From Prescottella sp. R16 (GTDB lineage: Bacteria > Actinomycetota > Actinomycetes > Mycobacteriales > Mycobacteriaceae): 64,000 nucleotides of DNA. The notes beneath the pieces were generated by a model. The model searched no databases and was not told the origin of the DNA. It saw only the letters and a program-made list of their open reading frames with translations. Position numbers and translations under genes: made by a program. Position 1 is the stretch's first letter, and each line of letters begins with the position of its first letter. The stretch spans positions 2,170,001-2,234,000 of the forward strand of contig NZ_CP130943.1 of the NCBI RefSeq assembly GCF_030656875.1. Direction: 5' to 3'. Below, in pieces: positions 28,059 to 40,342 of this stretch.

Positions 28059-28907
28059 ATGATCGGTGAGGCGATGACCTGGCTCCAGGCGATCGTCCTG
28101 GGTGCCGTGCAGGGTCTGACGGAGTTCCTGCCCATCTCGTCGTCGGGACATCTGCGGATCGTGTCGGAGATCTTCTTCGGCACCGACGCCGGTGCGTCGT
28201 TCACCGCGGTCACCCAGCTCGGCACGGAGGCGGCGGTGCTGCTGTACTTCGCCCGCGACATCGGCCGCATCGTCGCAGCCTGGTTCCGTGGACTGCTGCA
28301 CGCCGAGCACCGCAAGGACCTCGACTACCGGATGGGCTGGTATGTGATCATCGGCACCATTCCCGTCGGGGTGCTCGGATTCCTGTTCAAGGACCAGATC
28401 CGCACGGGTGCGCGGAATCTGTGGCTCATCGCCACGATGCTCATCGTGTTCGCCCTCGTCATCGCCGCCGCCGAACACTGGGGTCGCAAGACCCGCCCCA
28501 TCGAGGACCTGCGGGCGCGGGACGGCATCATCATGGGTTCCGCGCAGGCCCTCGCCCTCGTGCCCGGCGTGTCGAGGTCCGGCGGCACCATCAGTGCCGG
28601 CCTGTTCCTCGGTCTCACCCGTGAAGCGGCCGCACGCTATTCGTTCCTCCTCGCCATCCCCGCCGTCGTCGCGTCCGGCCTGTTCAGCCTCCCCGACGCC
28701 TTCGAACCCGCCGGCGAAGGACTCAACGCCTCCGGCCCGCAGTTGCTCGTCGCCACGCTCATCGCGTTCGCCATCGGCTACGCCTCCATCGCCTGGCTCC
28801 TCCGCTTCGTCGTCGACCACTCCATGTACTGGTTCGTCGGCTACCGTGTGATCCTCGGCGTCGTCGTCCTCGGGTTGCTGGCCACGGGAGTGGTGTCGGC
28901 GACGTAG
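28059..28907 (+). CDS. uppP: undecaprenyl-diphosphatase UppP (BacA)
   Basis: 282 residues with eight predicted membrane helices. It recycles the undecaprenyl carrier for peptidoglycan synthesis by removing the terminal phosphate. Catalytic motifs are [14 protein letters not shown] near the N-terminus and [16 protein letters not shown] in the middle. GGAG stands 8 nt before ATG 28059; ATG 28074 with GGTGAGG is an alternative that matches the mycobacterial N-terminus. Homologue of Rv2136c. In M. tuberculosis the next gene is the phosphoglycerate mutase-like Rv2135c; here an island intervenes. Confidence 0.95.
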
Positions 28908-28932
28908 GGGGGGCGACGCAACCGACTGTGGG

Positions 28933-30678
28933 TCAATCCCAGAGGTATGAAACAGGGCGTGCAGCTGCCTGGCGGACCAGATCCAGATGACGTCCCAACT
29001 CCCCGCTGTACGAGATGTCGGGCAGATGCAGGGTGTTCTCAGACGTACTCCAGGCCAGCGGCGTGTAGACGTCCGTGCCGGATTCATCACTGAACGAGAC
29101 CACGACGTACAGCCCGGTACCTCTTCGTTGCCATGCGGCCCGTAAAGCGGCGAGGTCCGGGGCAGGCAGATTCCACGGGGCGTCGAGGATGTTCTTGGTC
29201 ATGTAGTGAGCGCTGAGAACGGCAGGGCCGGCATCGTCCGACGACACGAATACCTCACGTGCCGCGATCTGCTCGACCGGATTGCGGCGTGTGGGCATCG
29301 TCGGCATCGGACCCCACAGCGTCGGACACAATTGCTTCGCTTGATCGAACAGCATCCGATGCACCGGATGCCGGGGGTGTTCGGGCGCGATGTGTGCCAC
29401 CGAACTGTTCGCTTCCCACCACGTCACCGTGCCGAGTGCCGCTCCGGTCCGAGCGAAGGCTGCGACAGTGCGGTCGTTGCCGTTCTCGTCGGAGACCTCG
29501 ATACGAATGCCGCTCGGGTCGAACGACTCCCGTGTCACCGGGAGAGTCAGGTCGAACGTCATCGTCGACAGCTCCCCGGTATCGGTGAGTATCACGGGGT
29601 AGACGACGACACCCGGTTCCCGTCGACGGTCGGTACTGCGGCGAAGTTGATCGCCGGTGACGACCATTTGTTGTCCGTCGCTGATCACGACGGTGCCGAG
29701 ACCGAGATAATCGGGATCGGTATCCCCGGTGAGTCGTGGACGTGCCGCCACCCATTCCGTCAGCAATCGATGCAATGGATGTAGCGGATTGGCCGGTTCG
29801 ATCCGGCGGATCACACCGTCACCGGACCACCAGGTTGCCCTTCCTACGGTGGCCCCGGGGCTGGCCCCGGTTGTCGCCCGCACTTCCCGTAGCCCTTCGC
29901 CGCGGGACGACACCTCGAATCGATACCGGCCGGGATCGAACTCCTTCCGGCCCCAATGCGTATTCGCGTCGAGGATCACTTTTTCGGGCCTCCCGCGATC
30001 GCTTTCGGTGGCAACTGTCCAGAACTGCTGCCCGTCCGGGTCTGTGTGAGGCTGCGGATCTCCGACGACGACCCGTGCCCCGCGCGCAACGATCAGGTCA
30101 CCTGGAATGAGGTCCGCAGGATCGGGTGCCCAGTGAGTGGAAGGATCCGGGACCCGCAGGATCGGACACGATTCCTCGGCTCGCGATATCAGCAACTGTC
30201 GCAGCGGATCGTGTGGACTACGCGGCGATAGGTTCAGGATGGTCCCGTCGGATTCACGCCACAACACTTCTCCGGATCGGAGTCCGTTCGACCAGGCGCC
30301 GATCGACCGGCGATCGTCTCGCGGCGTTTCGACCTCGAACTCGTACCGGCCGGCATCGAACGAGACTCGTTGCACCGGGGTATCGCAGTCGATGACGATT
30401 CGGGTGGGTTGCTGATTGCCGTGTACGACCTCGACGACGTGGAAGAGTGAACCGGACGGATCGCTGTACTGCTGCGGCGATCCCACGACGAGCGTCCGCC
30501 ATCCGATCCCGCGGATACGGATCAAGTCCCCGGGCGAGAACTCTCCGGGGTCGACTGTGCTCTTGTTGCGGCTCCAGGGGCCGGACTTGTTGTTACTCAA
30601 TACTTCCCCTATGGTGTGCGATTCTTCACAGTCGGCTGGACAGTACATCGACCGGCCGACACTGCAGTGTCGGATCAT
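28933..30678 (-). CDS. large island protein with three tandem ~140-residue modules
   Basis: About 581 residues from the ATG at 30678; ATG 30647 or a TTG near 30596 are alternative starts. Three copies of one module are visible (residues about 45-175, 186-316 and 324-455). Each has an early GDLI/GTVV strand, a F-D-x-G-R-Y-x-F-E-V strand (107-116, 247-256, 386-395) and an ending of the form W-x-I-x-P-x-P-x-P-L-x-L-L (140-163, 283-306, 420-443). The last 125 residues form a different domain (LRAAWQRRGTGLYVVVSFSDESGTDVYTPL). No signal peptide or membrane segment. I recognise no family. GC is lower than in core genes. A small gene with one related module sits 7 bp upstream. Confidence 0.7.
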   Translation of the reverse strand: MIRHCSVGRSMYCPADCEESHTIGEVLSNNKSGPWSRNKSTVDPGEFSPGDLIRIRGIGWRTLVVGSPQQYSDPSGSLFHVVEVVHGNQQPTRIVIDCDTPVQRVSFDAGRYEFEVETPRDDRRSIGAWSNGLRSGEVLWRESDGTILNLSPRSPHDPLRQLLISRAEESCPILRVPDPSTHWAPDPADLIPGDLIVARGARVVVGDPQPHTDPDGQQFWTVATESDRGRPEKVILDANTHWGRKEFDPGRYRFEVSSRGEGLREVRATTGASPGATVGRATWWSGDGVIRRIEPANPLHPLHRLLTEWVAARPRLTGDTDPDYLGLGTVVISDGQQMVVTGDQLRRSTDRRREPGVVVYPVILTDTGELSTMTFDLTLPVTRESFDPSGIRIEVSDENGNDRTVAAFARTGAALGTVTWWEANSSVAHIAPEHPRHPVHRMLFDQAKQLCPTLWGPMPTMPTRRNPVEQIAAREVFVSSDDAGPAVLSAHYMTKNILDAPWNLPAPDLAALRAAWQRRGTGLYVVVSFSDESGTDVYTPLAWSTSENTLHLPDISYSGELGRHLDLVRQAAARPVSYLWD

Positions 30679-30685
30679 TGGTGTG

Positions 30686-31069
30686 TCAAAGCCGGGGCCG
30701 GCACGGCTGCCACTGATCCGATTCTTCGATGCTGTAGAGCGCTCGGCCCGCGGGGGTGTGGATCTGCAGTACGTTGAATCCTCGTAGTACGACGCGGCTG
30801 TCGGCGCCGAGGAGTGTGGCGGCGACCCCGTCCGGATCGTGGTTGCGGAACCATGTGACTTCGTCGCCGACGGTGGCTCGGATGAGGCCGTCACTGTCCA
30901 CGACAGCGGTGACCTCGATTTCCGTCTCGGATTCGAACGCTTTGCGTGCCTGGATCCAGTGGACGTGATGGCCTGCACCGTACGATCCGCAGTCGGGTGC
31001 GGAGCTGCCGATCCTGCACACAGTGATCTGCGACTCGTTACCGGACTCGGAAGTGATGGGTTCGGTCAT
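30686..31069 (-). CDS. small companion of the three-module protein
   Basis: 127 residues; a GGAGGGA ribosome binding site precedes ATG 31069. Its middle part resembles one half of the module repeated in the next gene: FESETEIEVTAVVDSDG corresponds to F-D-x-G-R-Y-x-F-E-V, and TVGDEVTWFRNHD corresponds to the G-x-V-x-W strand. Cysteines occur in VCRIGSSAPDCGS. It ends 7 bp before the large gene begins, so the two form an operon. Function unknown. The 277 bp upstream, towards the restriction gene, contain no other convincing gene and should hold the divergent promoters. Confidence 0.65.
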   Translation of the reverse strand: MTEPITSESGNESQITVCRIGSSAPDCGSYGAGHHVHWIQARKAFESETEIEVTAVVDSDGLIRATVGDEVTWFRNHDPDGVAATLLGADSRVVLRGFNVLQIHTPAGRALYSIEESDQWQPCRPRL

Positions 31070-31346
31070 GGCGGATTCCCTCCGTCGGGGTCCCCTCGGG
31101 GACGCTCCTGCCCGCATCGGTCGACACGGACCACTTCGTCACCCGAACCACCCATGAGCATGGGGTTGGTGTGCGACCCAGTCGGGGCTTGGCGGCCGCA
31201 TCTCGTGAAGTGCAGACACGATACTGCGAGGCACCGACAATTTCGGTGGGCAGCGGTTCCGTGGCCAGGTCTGTACCCGACCGGCCGCAGACCAGGGCAA
31301 GATATCCAGCTGAGTGTTGTCGGGTCTGCGAAGGGGCGGGTTGGTC

Positions 31347-34300
31347 ATGGGTTCTGTTCACGAGGTGATCGAGGCGTTTCGTGAGGCGCCGTCGAACTCT
31401 GAGCGGGGTACCCAGTTCGAGCAGTTGATGGTCCGCTACTTCCAGCTCGATCCGTTGCTGTCGCAGCAGTACGAGCAGGTGTGGCGGTGGACGGACTGGC
31501 CGGGCCGTGATGGCAAGCCGGACACCGGGATTGACCTTGTGGCGCGGGAGCGGGACACGGGTGCATTCACGGCGATTCAGTGCAAGTTCTACGAGCCGAC
31601 CCACACCCTCGCCAAGGCGGATATCGATTCGTTCTTCACGGCGTCGGGGAAGAAGCCGTTCACGAACCGGCTGATCATCTCGACCACCGATCGATGGGGA
31701 AAGAACGCGGAGGCGGCGCTCGAGGATCAGCACACGCCGGTGCAGCGGATCGGGTTGGCGGAGATCGCCGAGTCCCCGATCGACTGGGATGTGGCGTGGC
31801 CGAAGGGCGAACTTACGGTCACGTTGTCGGAGGCGAAGCGGCACGATCCGCGCCCGCATCAGCAGGACGCGATCGATGCGGTGTTCACCGGGTTTGATGC
31901 CGGTCACGACCGCGGCAAGCTGATCATGGCGTGCGGCACCGGCAAAACGTTCACCGCGTTGAAGATCGCGGAACGTACCGCCGCCGAGCAGGGTGGGTCG
32001 GCGAAGATCTTGTTCGCGGTGCCGTCGATCTCGCTGCTGTCGCAGACGTTGCGGGAGTGGACCGCCCAGACCCTGTTGGATCTGCGGGCGTTCGCCGTCT
32101 GCTCGGACACGAAGGTCTCCCGGGCCGCCGAGGACATCGGCGCGGTGGATGTCGCGATTCCGGTCACCACCGACCCGGCCACCCTCGCCGCGGAGATGGG
32201 GCACCGCAAGCGGGCGAAGGGGTTGACGGTGGTGTTCACCACCTACCAGTCCCTGCCGGTGGTCGCGGCCGCCCAGGCGCAGGGTGGGGTGGACGGGTTC
32301 GATCTGGTGATCTGCGACGAAGCCCACCGCACCACCGGCGTCACCTTGGCAGGTGAGGACGAGTCGAACTTCGTCCGCGTGCACGACGGGGACTTCCTCG
32401 AGGCGGCACGCCGGCTGTATATGACGGCGACGCCGCGTCTGTTCGACGAGAAGGTCAAGGACCAGGCGGCCGAGCATTCGGCCGAGCTGGCGTCGATGGA
32501 TGACGAGACGAAGTTCGGGCCGGAGTTCCACCGGCTGTCGTTCGGGGACGCGGTCGAGCGGGGCTTGTTGACGGACTACAAGGTGATCGTGCTGACCGTC
32601 GACGAGGACCTCGTCGCCTCCCCGTTGCAGCAGCAGCTCGCCGGCGAGTTCTCCGAGCTGAAACTCGACGATGCGTCGAAGATCGTCGGCTGCTGGAACG
32701 GTCTGGCGAAGCGGGCCGGGCGGACCCCGGACGGCACCGGGTTCGCGCCGGGGGAGCCGCCGATGCGGCGGGCGGTGGTGTTCGCGAAGGACATCGCCGC
32801 CTCCAAGCAGGTCGCCGAGGTGTTTCCCGCGGTCGTCGACGCATACCGGGATCTGTTGGACGAGAGCGAGAACGACGGCCACGACATCGCGGCGACGAAC
32901 CGGGATCTGGCGTGTTCGGTGCACCACGTCGACGGCACCTACAACGCCCTGCAACGCAACGCCGAACTCTCCTGGCTCAAGGCGCCGGTCCCGGAGGGGG
33001 AGTGCCGGATCCTCACCAACGCCCGCTGCCTGTCCGAAGGCGTGGATGTCCCCGCCCTGGATGCGGTGATGTTCCTGAACCCGCGTAACAGTGTGGTGGA
33101 TGTGGTGCAGTCGGTGGGGCGGGTGATGCGTAGGGCCGACGGCAAGGACTACGGCTACATCATCTTGCCGGTCGCCGTCCCTGCCGGCGTGTCCCCGTCG
33201 CAGGCGTTGTCGGACAACCGCCGTTTCAAAGTTGTGTGGCAGGTCCTCAACGCTTTGCGCGCGCACGACGACCGGTTCAACGCGATGGTCAACTCGATTG
33301 CCCTCAATTCGACTGTGGTGGAGAAGAAGACCGGCAAGGGCTCGTCGATGCTGATGGGCGACCACATCGGCCCCGTCTCGGACGGAACCGGCGAATCTGT
33401 CGCCGGCACCGGCAACGGCGCCGATGGTGGCTCGTCGACCGCCGCTGGCTCTGACGGCGCCTCGACCGCCGCCGCGGATGCGGGTGGGCAGGTGGCGCAG
33501 CAGATGGCGCTGTTCTCCCTGTCCGAATGGCAGGAAGCGATCGTCGCGAAGATCGTCGACAAGGTCGGCACCCGCGCCTACTGGGAAGACTGGGCCGCCG
33601 ACGTCGCCGACATCGCCGCCGCCCAGATCACCCGCATCCGCGCCCAACTCGACGCCGCCGACCCGCAGGTCACCGCCGCGTTCGACCGCTTCCTGAAAGG
33701 CTTGCGGGACAACCTCAACGACTCCATCACCACCGACGACGCGATCAGCATGCTGAGCCAGCATTTGATCACCAAACCGGTGTTCGACGCCCTGTTCGCC
33801 GAACACGACTTCGCGTCCCACAACCCGGTCTCGCGGGTGATGCAGGCGATGGTCGACACCCTCGGCGACGCCGGCCTCGAAGCTGAGACCGCGAAACTCG
33901 ACGGCTTCTACGCCTCCGTCCGCACCCGCGCCGCCGAGGTCACCACCGCCGACGGCAAGCAGAAGGTGATCGCCGAACTCTACGAGAAGTTTTTCCGCCT
34001 CGGCTTCCGTAAGCAGTCCGAAGCCCTCGGGATCGTCTACACCCCCGTCGAGGTTGTCGACTTCATCCTCCGCGCCGCCAACCAGGCCTCCCGGGACGCG
34101 TTCGGCCGCGGCTTGACCGACGAAGGCGTCCACATCCTCGACCCGTTCACCGGGACCGGCACCTTCATCACCCGACTGCTGCAGTCCGGACTGATCTTCC
34201 CCGAAGACCTGGCCCGCAAGTACGCGCACGAGCTGCACGCCAACGAGATCATGCTCCTCGCGTACTACATCGCCGCGGTGAACATCGAATCCACCTATCA

Positions 34301-34646
34301 CGCTGTGCGTGACGCCGAGATCTGCGGGGGGGGGGGGGTATTCGCCGTTCGAGGGGATCGTGCTCGCCGACACCTTCCAGATCACCGAAGACGGCGACAC
34401 CATGGACGCGGACATGTTCCCCCAGAACAACGACCGCATCATCCGCCAGAAACAGATCCCCATCAACGTCGTCGTCGGCAACCCGCCGTACTCGGTCGGA
34501 CAGACCTCGGCGAACGACCTGAACGCGAACGTCGCGTATCCCACGCTCGACAAGCGGATCGCCGACACCTACGCCGCGCGATCGACGGCGACGAACAAGA
34601 ACAGTCTCTACGACTCCTACCTACGTGCCTTCCGGTGGGCCACTGA
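31347..34646 (+). CDS. Type ISP restriction-modification enzyme, nuclease-helicase-methylase part (frame broken at poly-G)
   Basis: The N-terminal part of a single-chain Type ISP (LlaBIII/LlaGI-like) enzyme. Residues 1-90 are an Mrr-like nuclease (Asp63 in TGIDLVA, QCK at 78-80). A superfamily 2 translocase follows, with Walker A CGTGKT near 195, DEAH near 324, TAT and a QSVGRVMRR motif VI. After a Gly/Ser/Ala-rich linker (near 685-715) come coupler helices and the start of a gamma-class N6-adenine methylase (DPFTGTGTF near 932). The frame runs into 13 G residues at 34326-34338 and then reads out of register to 34646, adding about 100 Arg/His-rich meaningless residues. The ATG at 31347 has AAGGGGCGGG upstream. 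Removing one G joins it to the next frame as a 1,665-residue protein. Confidence 0.85.
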   Translation: MGSVHEVIEAFREAPSNSERGTQFEQLMVRYFQLDPLLSQQYEQVWRWTDWPGRDGKPDTGIDLVARERDTGAFTAIQCKFYEPTHTLAKADIDSFFTASGKKPFTNRLIISTTDRWGKNAEAALEDQHTPVQRIGLAEIAESPIDWDVAWPKGELTVTLSEAKRHDPRPHQQDAIDAVFTGFDAGHDRGKLIMACGTGKTFTALKIAERTAAEQGGSAKILFAVPSISLLSQTLREWTAQTLLDLRAFAVCSDTKVSRAAEDIGAVDVAIPVTTDPATLAAEMGHRKRAKGLTVVFTTYQSLPVVAAAQAQGGVDGFDLVICDEAHRTTGVTLAGEDESNFVRVHDGDFLEAARRLYMTATPRLFDEKVKDQAAEHSAELASMDDETKFGPEFHRLSFGDAVERGLLTDYKVIVLTVDEDLVASPLQQQLAGEFSELKLDDASKIVGCWNGLAKRAGRTPDGTGFAPGEPPMRRAVVFAKDIAASKQVAEVFPAVVDAYRDLLDESENDGHDIAATNRDLACSVHHVDGTYNALQRNAELSWLKAPVPEGECRILTNARCLSEGVDVPALDAVMFLNPRNSVVDVVQSVGRVMRRADGKDYGYIILPVAVPAGVSPSQALSDNRRFKVVWQVLNALRAHDDRFNAMVNSIALNSTVVEKKTGKGSSMLMGDHIGPVSDGTGESVAGTGNGADGGSSTAAGSDGASTAAADAGGQVAQQMALFSLSEWQEAIVAKIVDKVGTRAYWEDWAADVADIAAAQITRIRAQLDAADPQVTAAFDRFLKGLRDNLNDSITTDDAISMLSQHLITKPVFDALFAEHDFASHNPVSRVMQAMVDTLGDAGLEAETAKLDGFYASVRTRAAEVTTADGKQKVIAELYEKFFRLGFRKQSEALGIVYTPVEVVDFILRAANQASRDAFGRGLTDEGVHILDPFTGTGTFITRLLQSGLIFPEDLARKYAHELHANEIMLLAYYIAAVNIESTYHAVRDAEICGGGGVFAVRGDRARRHLPDHRRRRHHGRGHVPPEQRPHHPPETDPHQRRRRQPAVLGRTDLGERPERERRVSHARQADRRHLRRAIDGDEQEQSLRLLPTCLPVGH

Positions 34647-36345
34647 CCGGATCGGTGACGCCGGCATCGTCGCGTTCGTCTCCAACGGCGGCTGGATCGA
34701 CGGCAACACCGCCGACGGCATCCGCCTGTCCTTGGCCGGCGAGTACTCCCGCATCTACGTCTACAACCTGCGCGGCAACCAGCGCACCGCCGGCGAACTG
34801 TCCCGCAAGGAAGGCGGCAAGATCTTCGGCTCCGGCAGCCGCAACACCGTCGCCGTCCTCATCGGCATCAAGAACCCCGCCCACACCGGCGACTGCGAGA
34901 TCTTCTACCGCGACATCGGTGACTACCTGAGCCGCGAGCAGAAACTCGAGATCGTCGACGCCGACACCCTCCCCAGCATCGACTGGCAGCCCATCACCCC
35001 CAACGCCCACGGCGACTGGGTCAACCACCGCAACGACGACTACCTCGCCTGGCCCGCCATCGGAGAGAAGAGCCCCGCCCCGGGGCAGGCCACGGTGTTC
35101 ACGATCTACTCATCTGGTTTGAAGACCGGACGCGACTCCTGGTGCTACAACTCATCCCGTACCGGTCTCGTCAAGTCGATCGAGGAACTTGCGACCCAGT
35201 ACCGCGACACCCAGAAGAAGTTCGCCCAGTACTGCACCGACGTCGGCGAACCCAAGCCCACACCGGACACGGTCGCCACGTTCCTCGCCGCCAACCCGGA
35301 ACTGACCGGGACCGGGAAGATCAGCTGGAACCGTGGTCTGCGCACCGACCTCGCCAAAGGCACGGACATCGTCTTCGCTGACGACTCTGTCCGGCTCGGC
35401 AGCTACCGGCCGTTCAATACTCAGTGGTCCTATCTCGACCGCCGCGTCAACGACATGATCTACAAGCTCCCCACGATGTTTCCCACCTCGCACCAGACGA
35501 ACATCGGCATTGTGTTGACCGGCGCAGCATCGCATTTCGAGTTCACCCCGTTCATCACCGACTTGCTCCCCAACCTGCATGTCCTGGACACGGCCCAGTT
35601 CTTCCCGCGATGGACCTACGCCAAGGCCGAATCCGCCGATGGCGAGCTGGATTTCGCATCAACAGACACCACCGACGTCGACGAGTACGGCTACCGGAGG
35701 ATCGACAACATCACCGACAGCATCCTCGCCCTCTACCGCGGCGCGGTCGGCGACCAGGTCACCAAGGACGACATCTTCTTCTACGTCTACGGACTGGTCC
35801 ACGACCCCGCCTACCGGCAGGCCTACGCGGCGGATCTGAAGAAGATGCTCCCGCGCATCCCCACCCCCGAAACCCAGGAACGGTTCGAGCAACTCACCGC
35901 CGCCGGCAGGCAGCTGGCTGATCTGCATGTGAACTACGAGACGGTGGCGCCGTACGACCTCGACGTGCAGCTCAAGAAGGGGACTGACCCCGCCGATCGG
36001 GAGACGTGGCGGGTGGCGAAACTCAAGTGGGGCAAAAAGAAAGACTCCGACACCGGCAAGAACATCGACGACCGCACCACCATCGTCTACAACCCGAAGG
36101 TCACCATCACCGGCATCCCCGAAGACGCCGAACGCTACATGCTCGGATCCCGATCCGCGCTCGCGTGGATCATCGACCGCTACCAGATCAAGCCCGACAA
36201 GGCATCCGGCATCGTCAACGACCCCAACAACTGGTGCGACGAACACGGCGACCCCACCTACATCGTCGATCTGATCAAGCGCGTGACGACTGTAGCCGTC
36301 GAGACGATGCGGATCGTGGATATGTTGGCCGAGACCAAGATCTGA
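34309..36345 (+). CDS. Type ISP restriction-modification enzyme, methylase motif IV and target-recognition part
   Basis: The second frame of the split Type ISP gene. It contributes YSPFEGIVLADTFQ, the catalytic NPPY motif of adenine-N6 methylases (VVVGNPPYSVGQ), the remaining methylase motifs (IVAFVSNGGWIDGN, VYNLRGNQRTAGE) and a long C-terminal target-recognition domain ending in VDMLAETKI. The nominal GTG at 34309 has no ribosome binding site and lies within the upstream frame, so this part is probably not made separately; it needs a 12-G tract or ribosomal slippage. Sequence to the end is intact with no further stops, arguing against old decay. A HEPN-motif gene follows after 9 bp. Confidence 0.85.
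   Translation: MTPRSAGGGGYSPFEGIVLADTFQITEDGDTMDADMFPQNNDRIIRQKQIPINVVVGNPPYSVGQTSANDLNANVAYPTLDKRIADTYAARSTATNKNSLYDSYLRAFRWATDRIGDAGIVAFVSNGGWIDGNTADGIRLSLAGEYSRIYVYNLRGNQRTAGELSRKEGGKIFGSGSRNTVAVLIGIKNPAHTGDCEIFYRDIGDYLSREQKLEIVDADTLPSIDWQPITPNAHGDWVNHRNDDYLAWPAIGEKSPAPGQATVFTIYSSGLKTGRDSWCYNSSRTGLVKSIEELATQYRDTQKKFAQYCTDVGEPKPTPDTVATFLAANPELTGTGKISWNRGLRTDLAKGTDIVFADDSVRLGSYRPFNTQWSYLDRRVNDMIYKLPTMFPTSHQTNIGIVLTGAASHFEFTPFITDLLPNLHVLDTAQFFPRWTYAKAESADGELDFASTDTTDVDEYGYRRIDNITDSILALYRGAVGDQVTKDDIFFYVYGLVHDPAYRQAYAADLKKMLPRIPTPETQERFEQLTAAGRQLADLHVNYETVAPYDLDVQLKKGTDPADRETWRVAKLKWGKKKDSDTGKNIDDRTTIVYNPKVTITGIPEDAERYMLGSRSALAWIIDRYQIKPDKASGIVNDPNNWCDEHGDPTYIVDLIKRVTTVAVETMRIVDMLAETKI
34326..34338 (+). 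repeat. run of 13 G residues inside the Type ISP gene (putative phase-variation tract)
   Basis: Between TCTGC and TATTCGCC the sequence is thirteen consecutive G. The helicase frame ends here and the methylase/target-recognition frame continues one position off. Twelve or fifteen G would give a continuous EICGGGGYSPFEG join, and YSPFEG is the expected methylase continuation. Either a slipped-strand switch in the OFF state or a homopolymer length error. Confidence 0.85.
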
Positions 36346-36354
36346 TAGGCAGCG

Positions 36355-37002
36355 ATGGAAGCGACAGGTGCACGGTTCGTGGACGGAGCAATTCAGGTAG
36401 ACGGCTACCCCGACGCGGTGAAGATTGCCGCTCTACCTCCAGACCTACCGGCGGATGCATCGAAGCGACTCGCAGACCTCGCCGCGCACATACAGGACCT
36501 CGTCTTCGCGAGTAGGGCGGCGGCCAGGCTCATCAACGAAGGGGGCGACCCGCCGCTCGTGCGTGACGCGCTCTGGCGATCTGCAGTTGTCGCATTCTGG
36601 CGCTGCTTCGACAAGACTTCAAAGCGGAGCCCCCTGGACCCGGCCGAAATCTACGGGGACGGGTTACCGCGCGAGGCGCACGAGTTCGTTCGAAAGCTCC
36701 GTAACAAGGGCATCGCCCACGACGATCGGATCTTCACCTCCTACGTACTTGGCGCCGTGATCGGACCCGATACAGAAGAGCGGAAAGTTATCGAGATCCT
36801 CTTTCATGGACTACAGGCCCAGGCCTTGACGTCTCCGATGCTGGTCAACTTCAAATTGCTGACGGAGGAGGCTCTTACCTGGGCGGACACGGAGTTTCAG
36901 AGCCAAGCCAGCCAAGTAGTGGTTCGCATGCGGTCAATGTCCTATGAGCAACTGCTCGCCTTGCCTGCTCTGTCGATCACTCCTCCCCAGGTGCTTGCGT
37001 GA
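36355..37002 (+). CDS. HEPN-motif protein directly behind the Type ISP gene
   Basis: 215 residues, mostly alpha-helical. The segment FVRKLRNKGIAHDDR has Arg116-Asn117-x4-His122, matching the R-(N/D/H)-x4-H motif of HEPN ribonucleases and nucleotide-binding proteins. There is no signal peptide. It begins 9 bp after the restriction enzyme stop, so it is very probably in the same operon. GC is clearly lower than in flanking core genes (about 53% in the sampled stretch 36781-36840), indicating foreign origin. A role as a backup abortive-infection nuclease is inference; no named family is recognised. Confidence 0.65.
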   Translation: MEATGARFVDGAIQVDGYPDAVKIAALPPDLPADASKRLADLAAHIQDLVFASRAAARLINEGGDPPLVRDALWRSAVVAFWRCFDKTSKRSPLDPAEIYGDGLPREAHEFVRKLRNKGIAHDDRIFTSYVLGAVIGPDTEERKVIEILFHGLQAQALTSPMLVNFKLLTEEALTWADTEFQSQASQVVVRMRSMSYEQLLALPALSITPPQVLA

Positions 37003-37061
37003 GGCGGCTATCTCGCGCCATCCGAGGGCGCCGTTGTCGTTCCCGAGTGGGCAGCGCCCCC

Positions 37062-37090
37062 ATGTCCTAGTTTCTTGGTCTTCAGGACAT
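37062..37090. terminator. candidate bidirectional terminator in the island
   Basis: ATGTCCT (37062-37068) and AGGACAT (37084-37090) form a perfect 7-bp stem around a T-rich 15-nt loop, located between two convergent genes. Confidence 0.45.
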
Positions 37091-37100
37091 CCACTGGCCC

Positions 37101-37904
37101 TCAGCGAAGCTGACCGTGAACTCCGTCTGGGATCGTCAATGTGAATGCGTCCAAACAGATAGGTGGAAGCCCGAGTGCGTTCCGCACGTGGTGGAGAAGC
37201 ACCTCACGTTCATGCAGTGTTCTATGCTTGTACGCCTTCACGGCATCACGCGAGCAGTGTGCAGCCTCCGCGGCTGTCGGTGACTCGTTGTCTTGCACGT
37301 GCACACTTTCCGCCACGTACCCGTTGGCGAACTCTTCCAGGAACCGGATCTGTACCATGAGCTGCTGGTAGGTCCAGCGAAGCATCTGAGCTGCGTAGCA
37401 GGGCTCCTCGTCCGCGACGAATTGGAAGAGGTCGATCGCACGGTTCAGGGCTGCGAGCGCTTCCTCGACCTCCAAGACAAGGTCTATCGGCGGTGGATTC
37501 TCCTGAACGAGTCTCTCCCGCGCAGACTCAGGGCCATCCCAGCTCCGGGCAAACGCGACCGATGTCTTCGTAGCCCGATCGACACGCGTGTCGAGCTCTG
37601 TTGCCGCCGTCAAGATCGCGGCCGCGGCGTCAACGGTTTGCTCCCGGATCCAGTTCCGTCGTTCCCGTTCCTCGGCAGCGAGGATGGTCTTGTCGACGCC
37701 ATCGGCGCTGGCTCTCACCGAGCTGGCGACGTTCGCCGCCGCTGCTTCGATAGATCTGTCCGCATTGACTTCTGCAGCTGCGATGGACTTGTCTGCATTG
37801 TCGCTGATCGTCTTGACGTTGCGATTGTTGATGTACAGCGCAATGCCGCCTGCGATCAGTGCCGCGACGATCGGCGCCAAGGTCTTCGTCAACTCGAACC
37901 ACAT
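37101..37904 (-). CDS. membrane-anchored coiled-coil protein of unknown function
   Basis: 267 residues. One transmembrane helix near the N-terminus (APIVAALIAGGIALYINN) is followed by an Ala-rich coiled coil built on a roughly 11-residue pattern (DKSIAAAEVNA, DRSIEAAAANV, DGVDKTILAAEE). A helical C-terminal domain contains MLRWTYQQLMVQIRFLEEF. The ATG at 37904 has AAGGAT 7 nt upstream. GC is low for this genome. No family is recognised. It sits among defence-like genes but nothing shows a direct link. Confidence 0.65.
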   Translation of the reverse strand: MWFELTKTLAPIVAALIAGGIALYINNRNVKTISDNADKSIAAAEVNADRSIEAAAANVASSVRASADGVDKTILAAEERERRNWIREQTVDAAAAILTAATELDTRVDRATKTSVAFARSWDGPESARERLVQENPPPIDLVLEVEEALAALNRAIDLFQFVADEEPCYAAQMLRWTYQQLMVQIRFLEEFANGYVAESVHVQDNESPTAAEAAHCSRDAVKAYKHRTLHEREVLLHHVRNALGLPPICLDAFTLTIPDGVHGQLR

Positions 37905-37936
37905 ACACACATCCTTGGGTACTCGCCGAGGCCGTT

Positions 37937-38293
37937 CTATTCGGTGGCCTTGGGGTGCCCGGTGCCCGCTGCTTTGATCCACAGGGTGCGGCGGGCTGTG
38001 TCGACGAGGTACCAGAGGCGTCCGCTGGCGGTGACCTCGTATTGCCACTGCTCCATCACAGTCCCGCCGTGGGCGGCGGTGGCGAGGGAGCCTTTGAGCT
38101 GGTGGTGCCGCGGGGTCGGTGCGGGAGTGTCGGTGCGGGAGCGCAGCTCGTTCCAGGCGGTGAGGGTGTTCGCCGGCGCCTGCTGGCACAGCGCATCCCA
38201 ACCCTTGACGGCGTCAGTGGTGGCGAACCGCAGCTCCCACCCGCCGGCCGGGTCTGCGGGCGGGGCGACCCGGTCGCCGCGTTTCGGGCTCAC
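37937..38293 (-). CDS. RelE/ParE-like toxin (putative)
   Basis: 118 residues with a compact alpha/beta pattern: WELRFATTDAVKGWDALCQQ, then a Lys-rich strand HQLKGSLAT and the C-terminal EQWQYEVTASGRLWYLVDTARRTLW sheet with terminal GHPKATE. This order of elements is typical of RelE/ParE-superfamily ribonuclease/gyrase toxins, and the partner gene upstream overlaps by 4 bp (ATGA). Catalytic residues cannot be assigned with certainty. Confidence 0.7.
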   Translation of the reverse strand: MSPKRGDRVAPPADPAGGWELRFATTDAVKGWDALCQQAPANTLTAWNELRSRTDTPAPTPRHHQLKGSLATAAHGGTVMEQWQYEVTASGRLWYLVDTARRTLWIKAAGTGHPKATE

Positions 38294-38766
38294 GAAGCGC
38301 CCGGCGCGGGGACAGCACCGAGGTCCTCATCGGTATCGGCCGCGAGGATCGCCGCCAACTCGGGGTCGGCCAGCACCTCCGCGGTGTGCCGCCAGGCCTC
38401 GATAACCTGCACCACCGGGGCTGGGTTGTCGAGCGATTCCGCCGCCCGCAGTGTCGCCACCAGCTCGACGACGAACTCCTGCACCTCTTCGCGGGAAAGG
38501 AACGCCACCCACGGGAACACTTCGGGCAGCACCTCGGTAACCAACTCCCGCGCCCTCGGATCGCGCTGCATCAACGCCACGAACATTCGTGTCGTCACAG
38601 ACGCTGCAGTGTGCTCGAGTTCGGCCCGCGCCGCGGTGGTTAGTACCAGGTCCTCGGCGTCGCGGCGTCGCACCCGCAGCGACTGGGCCGGTGAGCGGCG
38701 CAGCCGCTCGACTGTCGCTTTCCCCTGTAGCTGCAGTTCCGAGAATGTCACCTCATCCACACTCAT
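38290..38766 (-). CDS. putative antitoxin partner of the RelE-like toxin
   Basis: 158 residues. The N-terminal 50 residues (DEVTFSELQLQGKATVERL, then RRRDAEDLVLTT) look like a Phd/YefM-type DNA-binding antitoxin fold, and the C-terminal 100 residues are helical and acidic. The gene precedes and overlaps the toxin, the standard antitoxin-toxin order. Just upstream, an AT-rich palindrome (AAGTACTT, about 38774) in an otherwise GC-rich region may be the operator of the pair. Confidence 0.7.
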   Translation of the reverse strand: MSVDEVTFSELQLQGKATVERLRRSPAQSLRVRRRDAEDLVLTTAARAELEHTAASVTTRMFVALMQRDPRARELVTEVLPEVFPWVAFLSREEVQEFVVELVATLRAAESLDNPAPVVQVIEAWRHTAEVLADPELAAILAADTDEDLGAVPAPGAS

Positions 38767-39090
38767 ACATTAAAAGTACTTCTAAAGTGGCGATCTGTCG
38801 AGCGGTCGGTGCCGCGATCGGCTGCAGTCCCCGCACGAGTCGGTGTCCAGCTGAACCTGTCAGCACGCCAGGCAGACGTTGGGCATGAGCATGCACGGAG
38901 TAGGAGTGCGCTGGATGTGACTACACGCGGCCGTCTCATTTCCTTGGTAGCGGGACGGTCCATGCTGGCGTTGATACGGGACGGGTCGTTCCAGCTCGCC
39001 GCGTCCCAGAACTTCATGTCGAAACTGCGTGTCGAAAGGTGGTGCTGGAACAGTTTCCAGCGCATTCGTCGACTCGAGGTGCTTGCTCCG
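38767..39090. other. gene-free stretch at the right edge of the island
   Basis: About 320 bp between the antitoxin start and the GNAT promoter. The first 25 bp are AT-rich with a palindrome (candidate toxin-antitoxin operator). The remainder has only short overlapping frames on both strands, none with a ribosome binding site and good codon pattern. No integrase site, tRNA fragment or insertion sequence end was recognised. Confidence 0.4.
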
Positions 39091-39096
39091 TAGGGT
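39091..39096 (+). promoter_or_regulatory. -10 element (TAGGGT) for leaderless GNAT gene
   Basis: TAGGGT ends 7 nt before the ATG at 39104. Confidence 0.45.
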
Positions 39097-39103
39097 GGTC
39101 GAC

Positions 39104-39901
39104 ATGTTCGACGACACCACGCGTGGCCGCATTCTGGACGCGATGGAGCGCAACTGTGCGTCCCATGCGAGCCACCTGCATCCGTCGGTGGCGGGTGCCC
39201 GTGTCCTCGACAGCGGTGATCTCGTGGTGGCCGACAGCGGGTTGGCCGACGATACGTTCAATCTCGTGTGCCGGGCCCGGTTCACCGAGGCGACCGCCCG
39301 TGCGCGCGTCGACGAGGTGATCGCGATGGCCCGAACGGTCGACAGGCCGTTCTCGTGGTGGGTTGCGCCGACCTCGACGCCGGCGGACCTGGGAACGATC
39401 CTGCGAGAGCGTGGGCTGTCGGCGTCGGAGACCGAAGAGGCGATGGTCGCCGTGCTCGCCGATGTGCCGCCGGCGCCGGCCCGCGACGAACTGACCGTTG
39501 TCGTCGTGGACTCGGTGGAGCGCCTGTGTGACTACGCCTCGTTGGTGGCCCGGAACTGGAGTCCGCCGTCACCGGAGGTGGTCGAGTTCCACGAACGCGC
39601 CGCCCACGCGATCCTCGCCGACGACTGCGCGAGCCGGTTCGTCGTCGGATACCTCGGCGACGAACCTGTCGCCGGCGCCGAGGTCCACTTCGACTCGGGC
39701 CTGGCCGGCCTGTACGGCGTCGTGACCCTCGACGCGCACCGTCGTCAGGGCTTCGGGACAGCGGTCACATTGACAGCCCTGGATATCGCCCGGTCGCGGG
39801 GAACCACCCACGCGGTACTGCAGGCGTCCGCCGACGGCGCACCCCTGTACGAGAAGATCGGGTTCACGACCATCGGCACCTACACCGAATACGCGGTGTG
39901 A
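39104..39901 (+). CDS. GNAT-family N-acetyltransferase
   Basis: 265 residues. The C-terminal half is a GNAT fold: VVGYLGDEPVAGAEVHF, then LYGVVTLDAHRRQGFGTAVT with the RRQGFGT acetyl-CoA pyrophosphate loop, and YEKIGFTTIGTYTEYAV at the end. The N-terminal half (residues 1-130) is an extra domain that may be a degenerate second GNAT unit. The acceptor is unknown. The promoter-to-start spacing supports ATG 39104 rather than longer starts. Confidence 0.85.
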   Translation: MFDDTTRGRILDAMERNCASHASHLHPSVAGARVLDSGDLVVADSGLADDTFNLVCRARFTEATARARVDEVIAMARTVDRPFSWWVAPTSTPADLGTILRERGLSASETEEAMVAVLADVPPAPARDELTVVVVDSVERLCDYASLVARNWSPPSPEVVEFHERAAHAILADDCASRFVVGYLGDEPVAGAEVHFDSGLAGLYGVVTLDAHRRQGFGTAVTLTALDIARSRGTTHAVLQASADGAPLYEKIGFTTIGTYTEYAV

Positions 39902-39911
39902 GAGCGACCGA

Positions 39912-40316
39912 TCACGCCCCGCCCGACAGCGAGTAGGTCACGTACTTCCCGCTCCATTCGAGGAACGCGCTCGTCGTCGCCTGCCCCCGGATCTCGTCGT
40001 TCTGCCACTGGTACACGTCGTGTCCGGGCGGCAGACTACCGACCCGCTCGAGCGTGTAGCGGTCGCGGTGGGCGGGGGAGCGGCGTCCGGCGATCTCGTC
40101 GAGGCTCATCGGCGGAGTGCCACCGAGCAGATACGTCCGGCCCAACGAGGAGATCTGTTCCGGCGGCGAGAACACGTTCAGGCTCCGGTACAACACCGCG
40201 AGATACAGGTACCCGGCCACCACGGCGAGCGCCAGTAGCAGCCCGCCCACCCGGACGGCCCGCCTCGTGTTCCTCGCTGCCCGGGTTCTCGCCGACACCC
40301 CCACCGACTCCTCCAT
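39912..40316 (-). CDS. single-pass membrane protein of unknown function
   Basis: 134 residues. A basic cytosolic N-terminus (ARTRAARNTRRAVR) is followed by one hydrophobic helix (GGLLLALAVVAGYLYLAVLY) and an extracellular domain of about 90 residues ending in LEWSGKYVTYSLSGGA. No family is recognised. The gene is divergent from the phosphoglycerate mutase-like gene, with 39 bp between starts, and converges on the GNAT gene with 10 bp between stops. Confidence 0.65.
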   Translation of the reverse strand: MEESVGVSARTRAARNTRRAVRVGGLLLALAVVAGYLYLAVLYRSLNVFSPPEQISSLGRTYLLGGTPPMSLDEIAGRRSPAHRDRYTLERVGSLPPGHDVYQWQNDEIRGQATTSAFLEWSGKYVTYSLSGGA

Positions 40317-40342
40317 GTCCCGATCATGTCAGCACGGACGCA

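What the first reader, a model, noticed from the sequence alone, without database searches (positions are those of the whole stretch)
34320..34345. Poly-G tract of 13 G splits a giant Type ISP restriction-modification gene: likely phase-variable
Two long, well-preserved frames (31347 onward and up to 36345) join exactly at G13. With 12 or 15 G the protein is continuous, and the join reads into the expected YSPFEG methylase motif; no other damage is seen in 5 kb. Long G runs are a known basis of slipped-strand switching of restriction-modification genes in pathogens such as Neisseria and Campylobacter, but this is rare in high-GC actinobacteria. In the given sequence the enzyme would be OFF (no NPPY motif, no target recognition), which also turns off a possible downstream HEPN gene by polarity.
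Basis: partly seen in the sequence, partly recalled or inferred. Interest (0 to 1): 0.85.

Follow-up and report, generated by a model that had tools for sequence, protein, structure and literature searches.

The report
Poly-G frameshift in restriction enzyme gene
In this bacterium the gene for a single-protein DNA-cutting defence enzyme is split into two reading frames by a run of 13 Gs that none of the related genes read here carries; the genome shows no MutS repair protein, so the run is predicted to slip and would switch the enzyme on and off, but no change of length has yet been seen.

Summary
G13 lies at 34326-34338, and a Type ISP restriction-modification gene changes frame exactly there: one profile covers positions 2-975 in the first frame and 978-1638 in the second, with no other break or internal stop. 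The host is a Rhodococcus-like actinobacterium (inferred) with NucS and no MutS match. Published work says NucS does not repair small indels, so a long G run should be unstable here.

The tract is private to this genome: no G run over 5 in the linker of 45 related loci, no glycine run over 2 there in 120 proteins. The second half shows no more decay than in an intact close relative, so the frameshift is recent, reversible or a length miscall. Six of 55 other loci also break frame, each elsewhere and with no homopolymer of 7 or more, so plain loss by frameshift is a real rival.

Switching is predicted, not shown: no reads or second isolate were available. The downstream 'HEPN' gene is an orphan with only a sub-threshold match. 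Verdict: a plausible new member of a known kind, the poly-G switchable restriction gene.

The parts
34326..34338 (+). Run of 13 G, the point where the reading frame changes
31314..34646 (+).
31446..31805 (+). Mrr_cat_2 restriction nuclease domain
   Evidence: PF13156, E 1e-49
31842..32438 (+). ResIII / DEAD helicase-like domain
   Evidence: PF04851, E 2e-25
32910..33134 (+). Helicase_C domain
   Evidence: PF00271, E 1.1e-8
33579..33953 (+). ISP coupler domain
   Evidence: PF22240, E 4.7e-51
34140..34160 (+). Methyltransferase motif I, DPFTGTG (motif name recalled)
   Evidence: translated
34299..34325 (+). Linker before the tract, unlike that of relatives; part of the 100-base bin with 0.75 identity to the nearest relative
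34309..36345 (+). Second frame: rest of the methyltransferase and the specificity domain
34480..34491 (+). Methyltransferase motif IV, NPPY (motif name recalled), only in the second frame
   Evidence: translated
35095..36273 (+). Type ISP C-terminal specificity domain
   Evidence: PF18135, E 6e-98
36355..37002 (+). Downstream orphan gene, 9 bases after the second frame; holds RNKGIAH; HEPN identity not established
28906..40342 (.). Island that carries the gene, between a BacA-family gene and a histidine phosphatase gene; flanks lie 15-37 bases apart in 12 of 13 genus relatives

Best explanation
A 13-G run, absent from every relative read, splits an otherwise intact Type ISP restriction-modification gene in a genome with NucS and no MutS match; the run likely slips during replication and would switch the enzyme at random between a split (off) and a full-length (on) form. 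Shown: the tract, the change of frame at it, intact domains on both sides, absence of the tract in relatives, a well-kept second half, NucS without MutS. Inferred: that the run grew recently from a short G stretch in a length-tolerant linker; that slips in it stay uncorrected because NucS does not act on indels; that they are frequent enough to give both states in one culture. In the split state the cell would make a nuclease-helicase without motif IV and without the specificity domain, expected neither to modify nor to restrict. It looks like a young contingency site, not an evolved and conserved switch.
For: One profile is split exactly at the tract and no other break or internal stop is seen. 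It is the only G run of 9 or more in the genome with coding-like flanks on both sides. NucS in 14 of 14 and MutS domain I in 0 of 14 genus genomes, while the MutS search finds 11 of 14 control genomes. In M. smegmatis NucS does not repair 1-2 base indels (PMC11551767, passages); in data quoted by PMC8228993 (passages) loss of nucS changes total indels 1-fold and 0-fold, loss of canonical repair 286- and 44-fold. Homopolymer switching is described in M. tuberculosis (PMC11898584, passages). On the window branch 13 synonymous and 5 nonsynonymous changes follow the tract, on the intact relative's branch 9 and 12: no sign of decay. The linker varies from 21 to 69 nt among 45 loci, so whole-codon changes are likely tolerated.
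Against: No length variation was observed; no reads and no second isolate were available. The tract is not conserved. The genome's G14 is also private (12 of 12 relatives read have no run over 5 there) and lies in noncoding-like DNA, so long runs arise here without selection for switching, or both are assembly faults. Six of 55 other loci are broken without long homopolymers. PMC8228993 notes that DnaE proofreading may remove most short indels.
Confidence: 0.5

Rival explanations
1. The tract is real but its length was miscalled in the assembly; the gene is in frame and always on.
For: Both frames are otherwise intact and as well kept as in an intact gene. Homopolymers are a usual place for assembly errors (PMC8339072, passages; PMC12007338 on gene-fragmenting errors in long-read assemblies, start of abstract in the listing). 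Another assembly of the genus, G012, has long poly-G at contig ends.
Against: Nothing here tests it; platform and coverage of this assembly are unknown. Even then a run of about this length would stay in the gene and be prone to slip.
Confidence: 0.25
2. A one-off expansion inactivated the gene, which is now a young pseudogene with no useful switching.
For: Six of 55 other Type ISP loci carry frame breaks without long homopolymers. The tract is private. The gene lies on an island that 12 of 13 genus relatives lack at this place.
Against: No stop or second break in the 2 kb after the tract and no excess of nonsynonymous changes on the window branch, though downstream counts are small (18 changes).
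Confidence: 0.2
3. The G run makes the polymerase or the ribosome slip, so that a fraction of full-length enzyme is made without any change of DNA.
For: Slippage at long homopolymers during transcription is established in general (recalled, no call). The second frame stays well kept.
Against: No relative has such a site, so no conserved device; nothing here measures RNA or protein.
Confidence: 0.05

Closest known systems
Type ISP enzymes LlaGI and LlaBIII (PDB 5ffj, 4xqk)
   Same: Same domain order; the intact relative P0004 aligns with both over nuclease or helicase, coupler, methyltransferase and specificity domain
   Different: Their genes are in one frame; at the linker they are two residues shorter than P0004 and no homopolymer switch is described in the passages seen
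Homopolymer-switched restriction genes of Helicobacter pylori: Type IIG JHP1272 and the S genes of BcgI-like systems (PMC3936762, passages)
   Same: A homopolymer inside a restriction-modification gene sets the frame; the BcgI-like S genes carry G repeats of 13 or 14
   Different: Other enzyme classes and a distant host; length variation was seen there. The H. pylori Type ISP cluster HP0667-HP0669 has frameshifts said not to be due to repeats (same passages)
[quoted passage not shown]
   Same: Same bacterial order (taxonomy recalled) and indels in homopolymers as the switch
   Different: No restriction genes; variation there is seen in large isolate collections
Type ISP gene of genus sibling G005 (P0004, L010/L085)
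   Same: 97% identical in the first part, 78% in the second
   Different: Intact, no tract, and on a contig whose flanks do not match the window

Membership tests
Type ISP restriction-modification enzyme | N-terminal Mrr-type nuclease domain | tested here: met
   PF13156, E 1e-49
Type ISP restriction-modification enzyme | SF2 helicase-like motor and ISP coupler | tested here: met
   PF04851, PF00271, PF22240
Type ISP restriction-modification enzyme | Gamma-type methyltransferase with motifs I and IV, and C-terminal specificity domain | tested here: met
   DPFTGTG in the first frame, NPPY in the second; PF18135
Type ISP restriction-modification enzyme | All in one polypeptide (definition in PMC3874165, passages) | tested here: not met
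   As deposited the gene is in two frames, so it is filed as a split Type ISP gene
Type ISP restriction-modification enzyme | ATP-dependent translocation, cleavage and one-strand methylation | not testable with these tools
   needs protein or a methylome
Homopolymer phase-variable restriction gene | Long simple repeat inside the coding sequence, at the point of frame change | tested here: met
   G13
Homopolymer phase-variable restriction gene | Both frames otherwise intact and under constraint | tested here: met
   (downstream counts small)
Homopolymer phase-variable restriction gene | Tract length varies among cells or isolates | not testable with these tools
   no reads, no second isolate
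Homopolymer phase-variable restriction gene | Tract kept in related strains or species (usual, not strictly defining) | tested here: not met
   no G run over 5 in 45 loci; no glycine run over 2 in 120 proteins; strains of the same species not available
Homopolymer phase-variable restriction gene | Methylation or restriction switches with tract length | not testable with these tools
   needs clones and a methylome
HEPN protein (downstream gene) | Profile match and R-x(4-6)-H in a helical fold | tested here: inconclusive
   RNKGIAH present; PF18734 E 0.03, below cut-off; model pLDDT 40, unusable; no relatives

The most novel reading that the evidence does not exclude
An actinobacterial Type ISP restriction enzyme is switched on and off by a poly-G tract that exploits the blind spot of NucS repair: without MutS, a long G run that lands in the enzyme's length-tolerant linker becomes at once a contingency switch for phage defence and DNA uptake.
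Probability: 0.4. Interest if true: 0.65.

Novelty: new member of a known kind. Interest (0 to 1): 0.45.

Why it matters
If the tract varies, homopolymer switching of restriction genes would extend to Type ISP enzymes and to bacteria without MutS. A clear question would become testable: does NucS-only repair turn long homopolymers into switches, and do such switches open windows for phage infection or plasmid entry? If the tract does not vary, the case is a useful caution about reading a frame break at a homopolymer in a single assembly.

Tried and rejected
Conserved switch: rejected, since no relative read has the tract.

Decayed second half: the raw comparison with the nearest relative gave a higher nonsynonymous share after the tract (pN/pS 0.24 against 0.08), which at first suggested relaxation. 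Polarised with three outgroups, the window branch has 90 synonymous and 15 nonsynonymous changes before and 13 and 5 after (Fisher p 0.17), the intact relative 67 and 21 before and 9 and 12 after (p 0.007); the excess is on the intact relative. Pairs without the window also run above 1 (post/pre ratios up to 2.11, same call).

Downstream HEPN: not established. The model had a mean pLDDT of 40, so no fold search was made.

Same linker in viral contigs: 0 matches; one distant relative in viral contigs. A hairpin TCACGC-TGT-GCGTGA before the tract: the 81-base stretch folds about as well as shuffles (z -1.0). Promoter-like sites between 34300 and 37100: 0. Long G runs of other genus genomes (ten loci, contexts): mostly flanks without a clear coding pattern; G012 has a G20 with coding-like flanks, but its assembly has poly-G at contig ends and I did not trust it.

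Limits: L011 and L012 lay on the other strand for the script and were not read; L054, L056 and L057 lacked one or both anchors. The 51 loci include two genes twice. Protein searches scored capped candidate lists and show the best 120. The shuffle expectation was made for the window and scaled by me.

Full report
WHAT IS THERE. A run of 13 G lies at 34326-34338 on the + strand, the only G or C run of 8 or more in the window. A long frame runs into it (31314 or 31347 to 34646) and another, one frame over, runs out of it (34309-36345). The first holds an Mrr-type nuclease, a helicase-like motor and the ISP coupler; the second holds the Type ISP C-terminal specificity domain. One long model, PDLC03597, matches the first frame at positions 2-975 and the second at 978-1638. 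The methyltransferase is cut between DPFTGTG (34140-34160) and NPPY (34480-34491). No internal stop and no second break is seen when an intact relative is laid on it.

HOW UNUSUAL. 2 of 100 dinucleotide shuffles of the window contain a G13; scaled to the genome, composition alone would give a few. But the genome of 4,569,731 bases has just three G runs of 9 or more: a G9, this G13 and a G14, where shuffles give 1.48 overlapping G9 matches per 64 kb. The G14 lies between the end of a phosphoglycerate mutase-like gene and the start of a sensor-kinase-like gene (names recalled from the sequences). Only this G13 has coding-like composition on both sides.

WHOSE GENOME. Two contigs. Its rpoB DNA is 94-95% identical to the two genus siblings searched, 90% to Rhodococcus tukisamuensis, 88% to Nocardia thailandica and 85-87% to five mycobacterial genomes. 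It is a Rhodococcus-like actinobacterium (inferred), not a Mycobacterium.

RELATIVES. A scan of genome contigs gave 44 loci. Between the anchors the linker is 21 to 69 nt long and holds no G run over 5 in 45 loci read. Over the gene, as far as held, the longest G or C run is 4 to 7 in 50 of 51 loci and 9 in one. All 120 listed protein relatives were read at the linker: the longest glycine run is 2. The nearest, P0004, is 97% identical to the first frame and 78% to the second, with the linker ALIGSESVGEYSPFEG. DNA identity to G005 is 0.87 or more in each 100-base bin from 31400 to 35099 except the bin with the linker, 0.75, and falls to 0.44 from 35100 on, in the specificity domain. In LlaGI and LlaBIII the linker is two residues shorter than in P0004. 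The recognition loops of LlaGI named in PMC4872093 (passages) begin at residue 1017, by my count just after NPPY, so the linker is probably outside them (inference).

IS THE SECOND HALF DECAYING? Between window and G005, pN/pS is 0.08 before the tract and 0.24 in the 220 codons after it. Polarised with three outgroups, the window branch has 90 synonymous and 15 nonsynonymous changes before and 13 and 5 after (Fisher p 0.17); the intact relative has 67 and 21, then 9 and 12 (p 0.007). The window's second half is thus no worse kept than that of an intact gene, though counts are small. The frameshift is recent, reversible, or not real.

HOW COMMON ARE FRAME BREAKS? Of 55 other loci 6 break frame, each at another place (L034, L041, L052, L123, L124, L125), and none of the 6 holds a homopolymer of 7 or more. 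Seven plasmid loci (L006, L007, L121-L125) were picked because no gene was listed there; 3 of these 7 and 3 of the other 48 break. Frame breaks thus arise in this family without long repeats; the window is the only one at a long homopolymer.

REPAIR BACKGROUND. NucS is found in 14 of 14 genomes of the genus (and 7 of 14 controls), MutS domain I in 0 of 14 (and 11 of 14 controls). In M. smegmatis NucS does not repair 1-2 base indels (PMC11551767, passages). A table in PMC8228993 (passages) gives total indels as 1-fold and 0-fold in two nucS mutants and 286- and 44-fold in two canonical repair mutants; the same review says DnaE proofreading may remove most short indels. Homopolymer phase variation is described for M. 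tuberculosis (PMC11898584, passages) and reversible frameshift indels more widely (PMC8339072, start of abstract and passages). A slipping G13 is expected, not shown.

SETTING. The gene lies on an island, about 28906-40342, between a BacA-family gene and a histidine phosphatase gene. In 12 of 13 genus relatives the flanks lie 15-37 bases apart on one contig; in G005 they are on two contigs. Relatives of the second frame are in G005 and G013, a short piece in G007 and none in the other ten genus genomes; in G005 the gene is on another contig than the two flanks and in G013 at a distant place of the same contig. Plasmid records with a match number 30, 20 of them Rhodococcus. The next gene starts 9 bases after the second frame. 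It has one hit, its own; HEPN rests on RNKGIAH and a match below cut-off, and the model is unusable.

MECHANISM. Most likely a short G stretch in the linker (G005 has GGGGAG at the aligned place) lost its interrupting base and grew. In a cell without MutS such a run should gain and lose bases fast, and the gene would pass between split and full length, the linker absorbing whole-codon differences. In the split state NPPY and the specificity domain are missing, so neither modification nor restriction is expected. All steps beyond the sequence facts are inference.

WHAT IS KNOWN. Homopolymer switching of restriction genes is well known: in H. pylori a Type IIG enzyme and BcgI-like S genes switch so, while its Type ISP cluster has frameshifts said not to be due to repeats (PMC3936762, passages). 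A review speaks of phase-variable Type I and III systems (PMC12707154, passages). Searches: Type ISP with phase variation or homopolymer (20 of 375 listed), Type ISP with LlaBIII (12 papers), phase-variable restriction genes with Actinobacteria and homopolymer (1 paper), Type ISP with phase-variable (5 papers; passages of 4 seen), poly-G with Rhodococcus and phase variation. None of the listings or passages I saw reports a poly-G switched actinobacterial Type ISP gene; the library holds open-licence papers only.

VERDICT. Observation confirmed; interpretation partly supported; moderate interest, to be settled by reads.

Noticed in passing
G000:C1:3739168-3739181 (L082 1669-1682), outside the window: A G14 run (minus strand) upstream of a sensor-kinase-like gene, next to a palindromic repeat that occurs in many places in the genus; 12 of 12 relatives read have no G or C run over 5 there.
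   Followed up: partly
proteins P0050 and P0088 (no locus fetched): Two Type ISP proteins of different origin end alike right at the catalytic motif (NPPF then RKMS.CCG..CCCG), and several C-terminal pieces start just after it, as if a mobile intron sat in the motif codons.
   Followed up: no
window 28906-40342: An island of about 11.4 kb between a BacA-family gene and a histidine phosphatase gene, absent at this place in 12 of 13 genus relatives.
   Followed up: partly
window 28933-30978 (-): A 681-aa frame in the island without a Pfam, NCBIfam or PADLOC match and without a relative in the loci held; part of it may not be a gene.
   Followed up: no
window 34299-34325: The linker before the tract differs from all relatives and holds an inverted repeat TCACGC-TGT-GCGTGA, which could be the trace of a template switch (one search shows no unusual fold).
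   Followed up: partly
window 35100-35480 against L085: Identity to the nearest relative falls from about 0.9 to 0.44-0.59 in the specificity domain and recovers after it, as if recognition domains had been exchanged.
   Followed up: no
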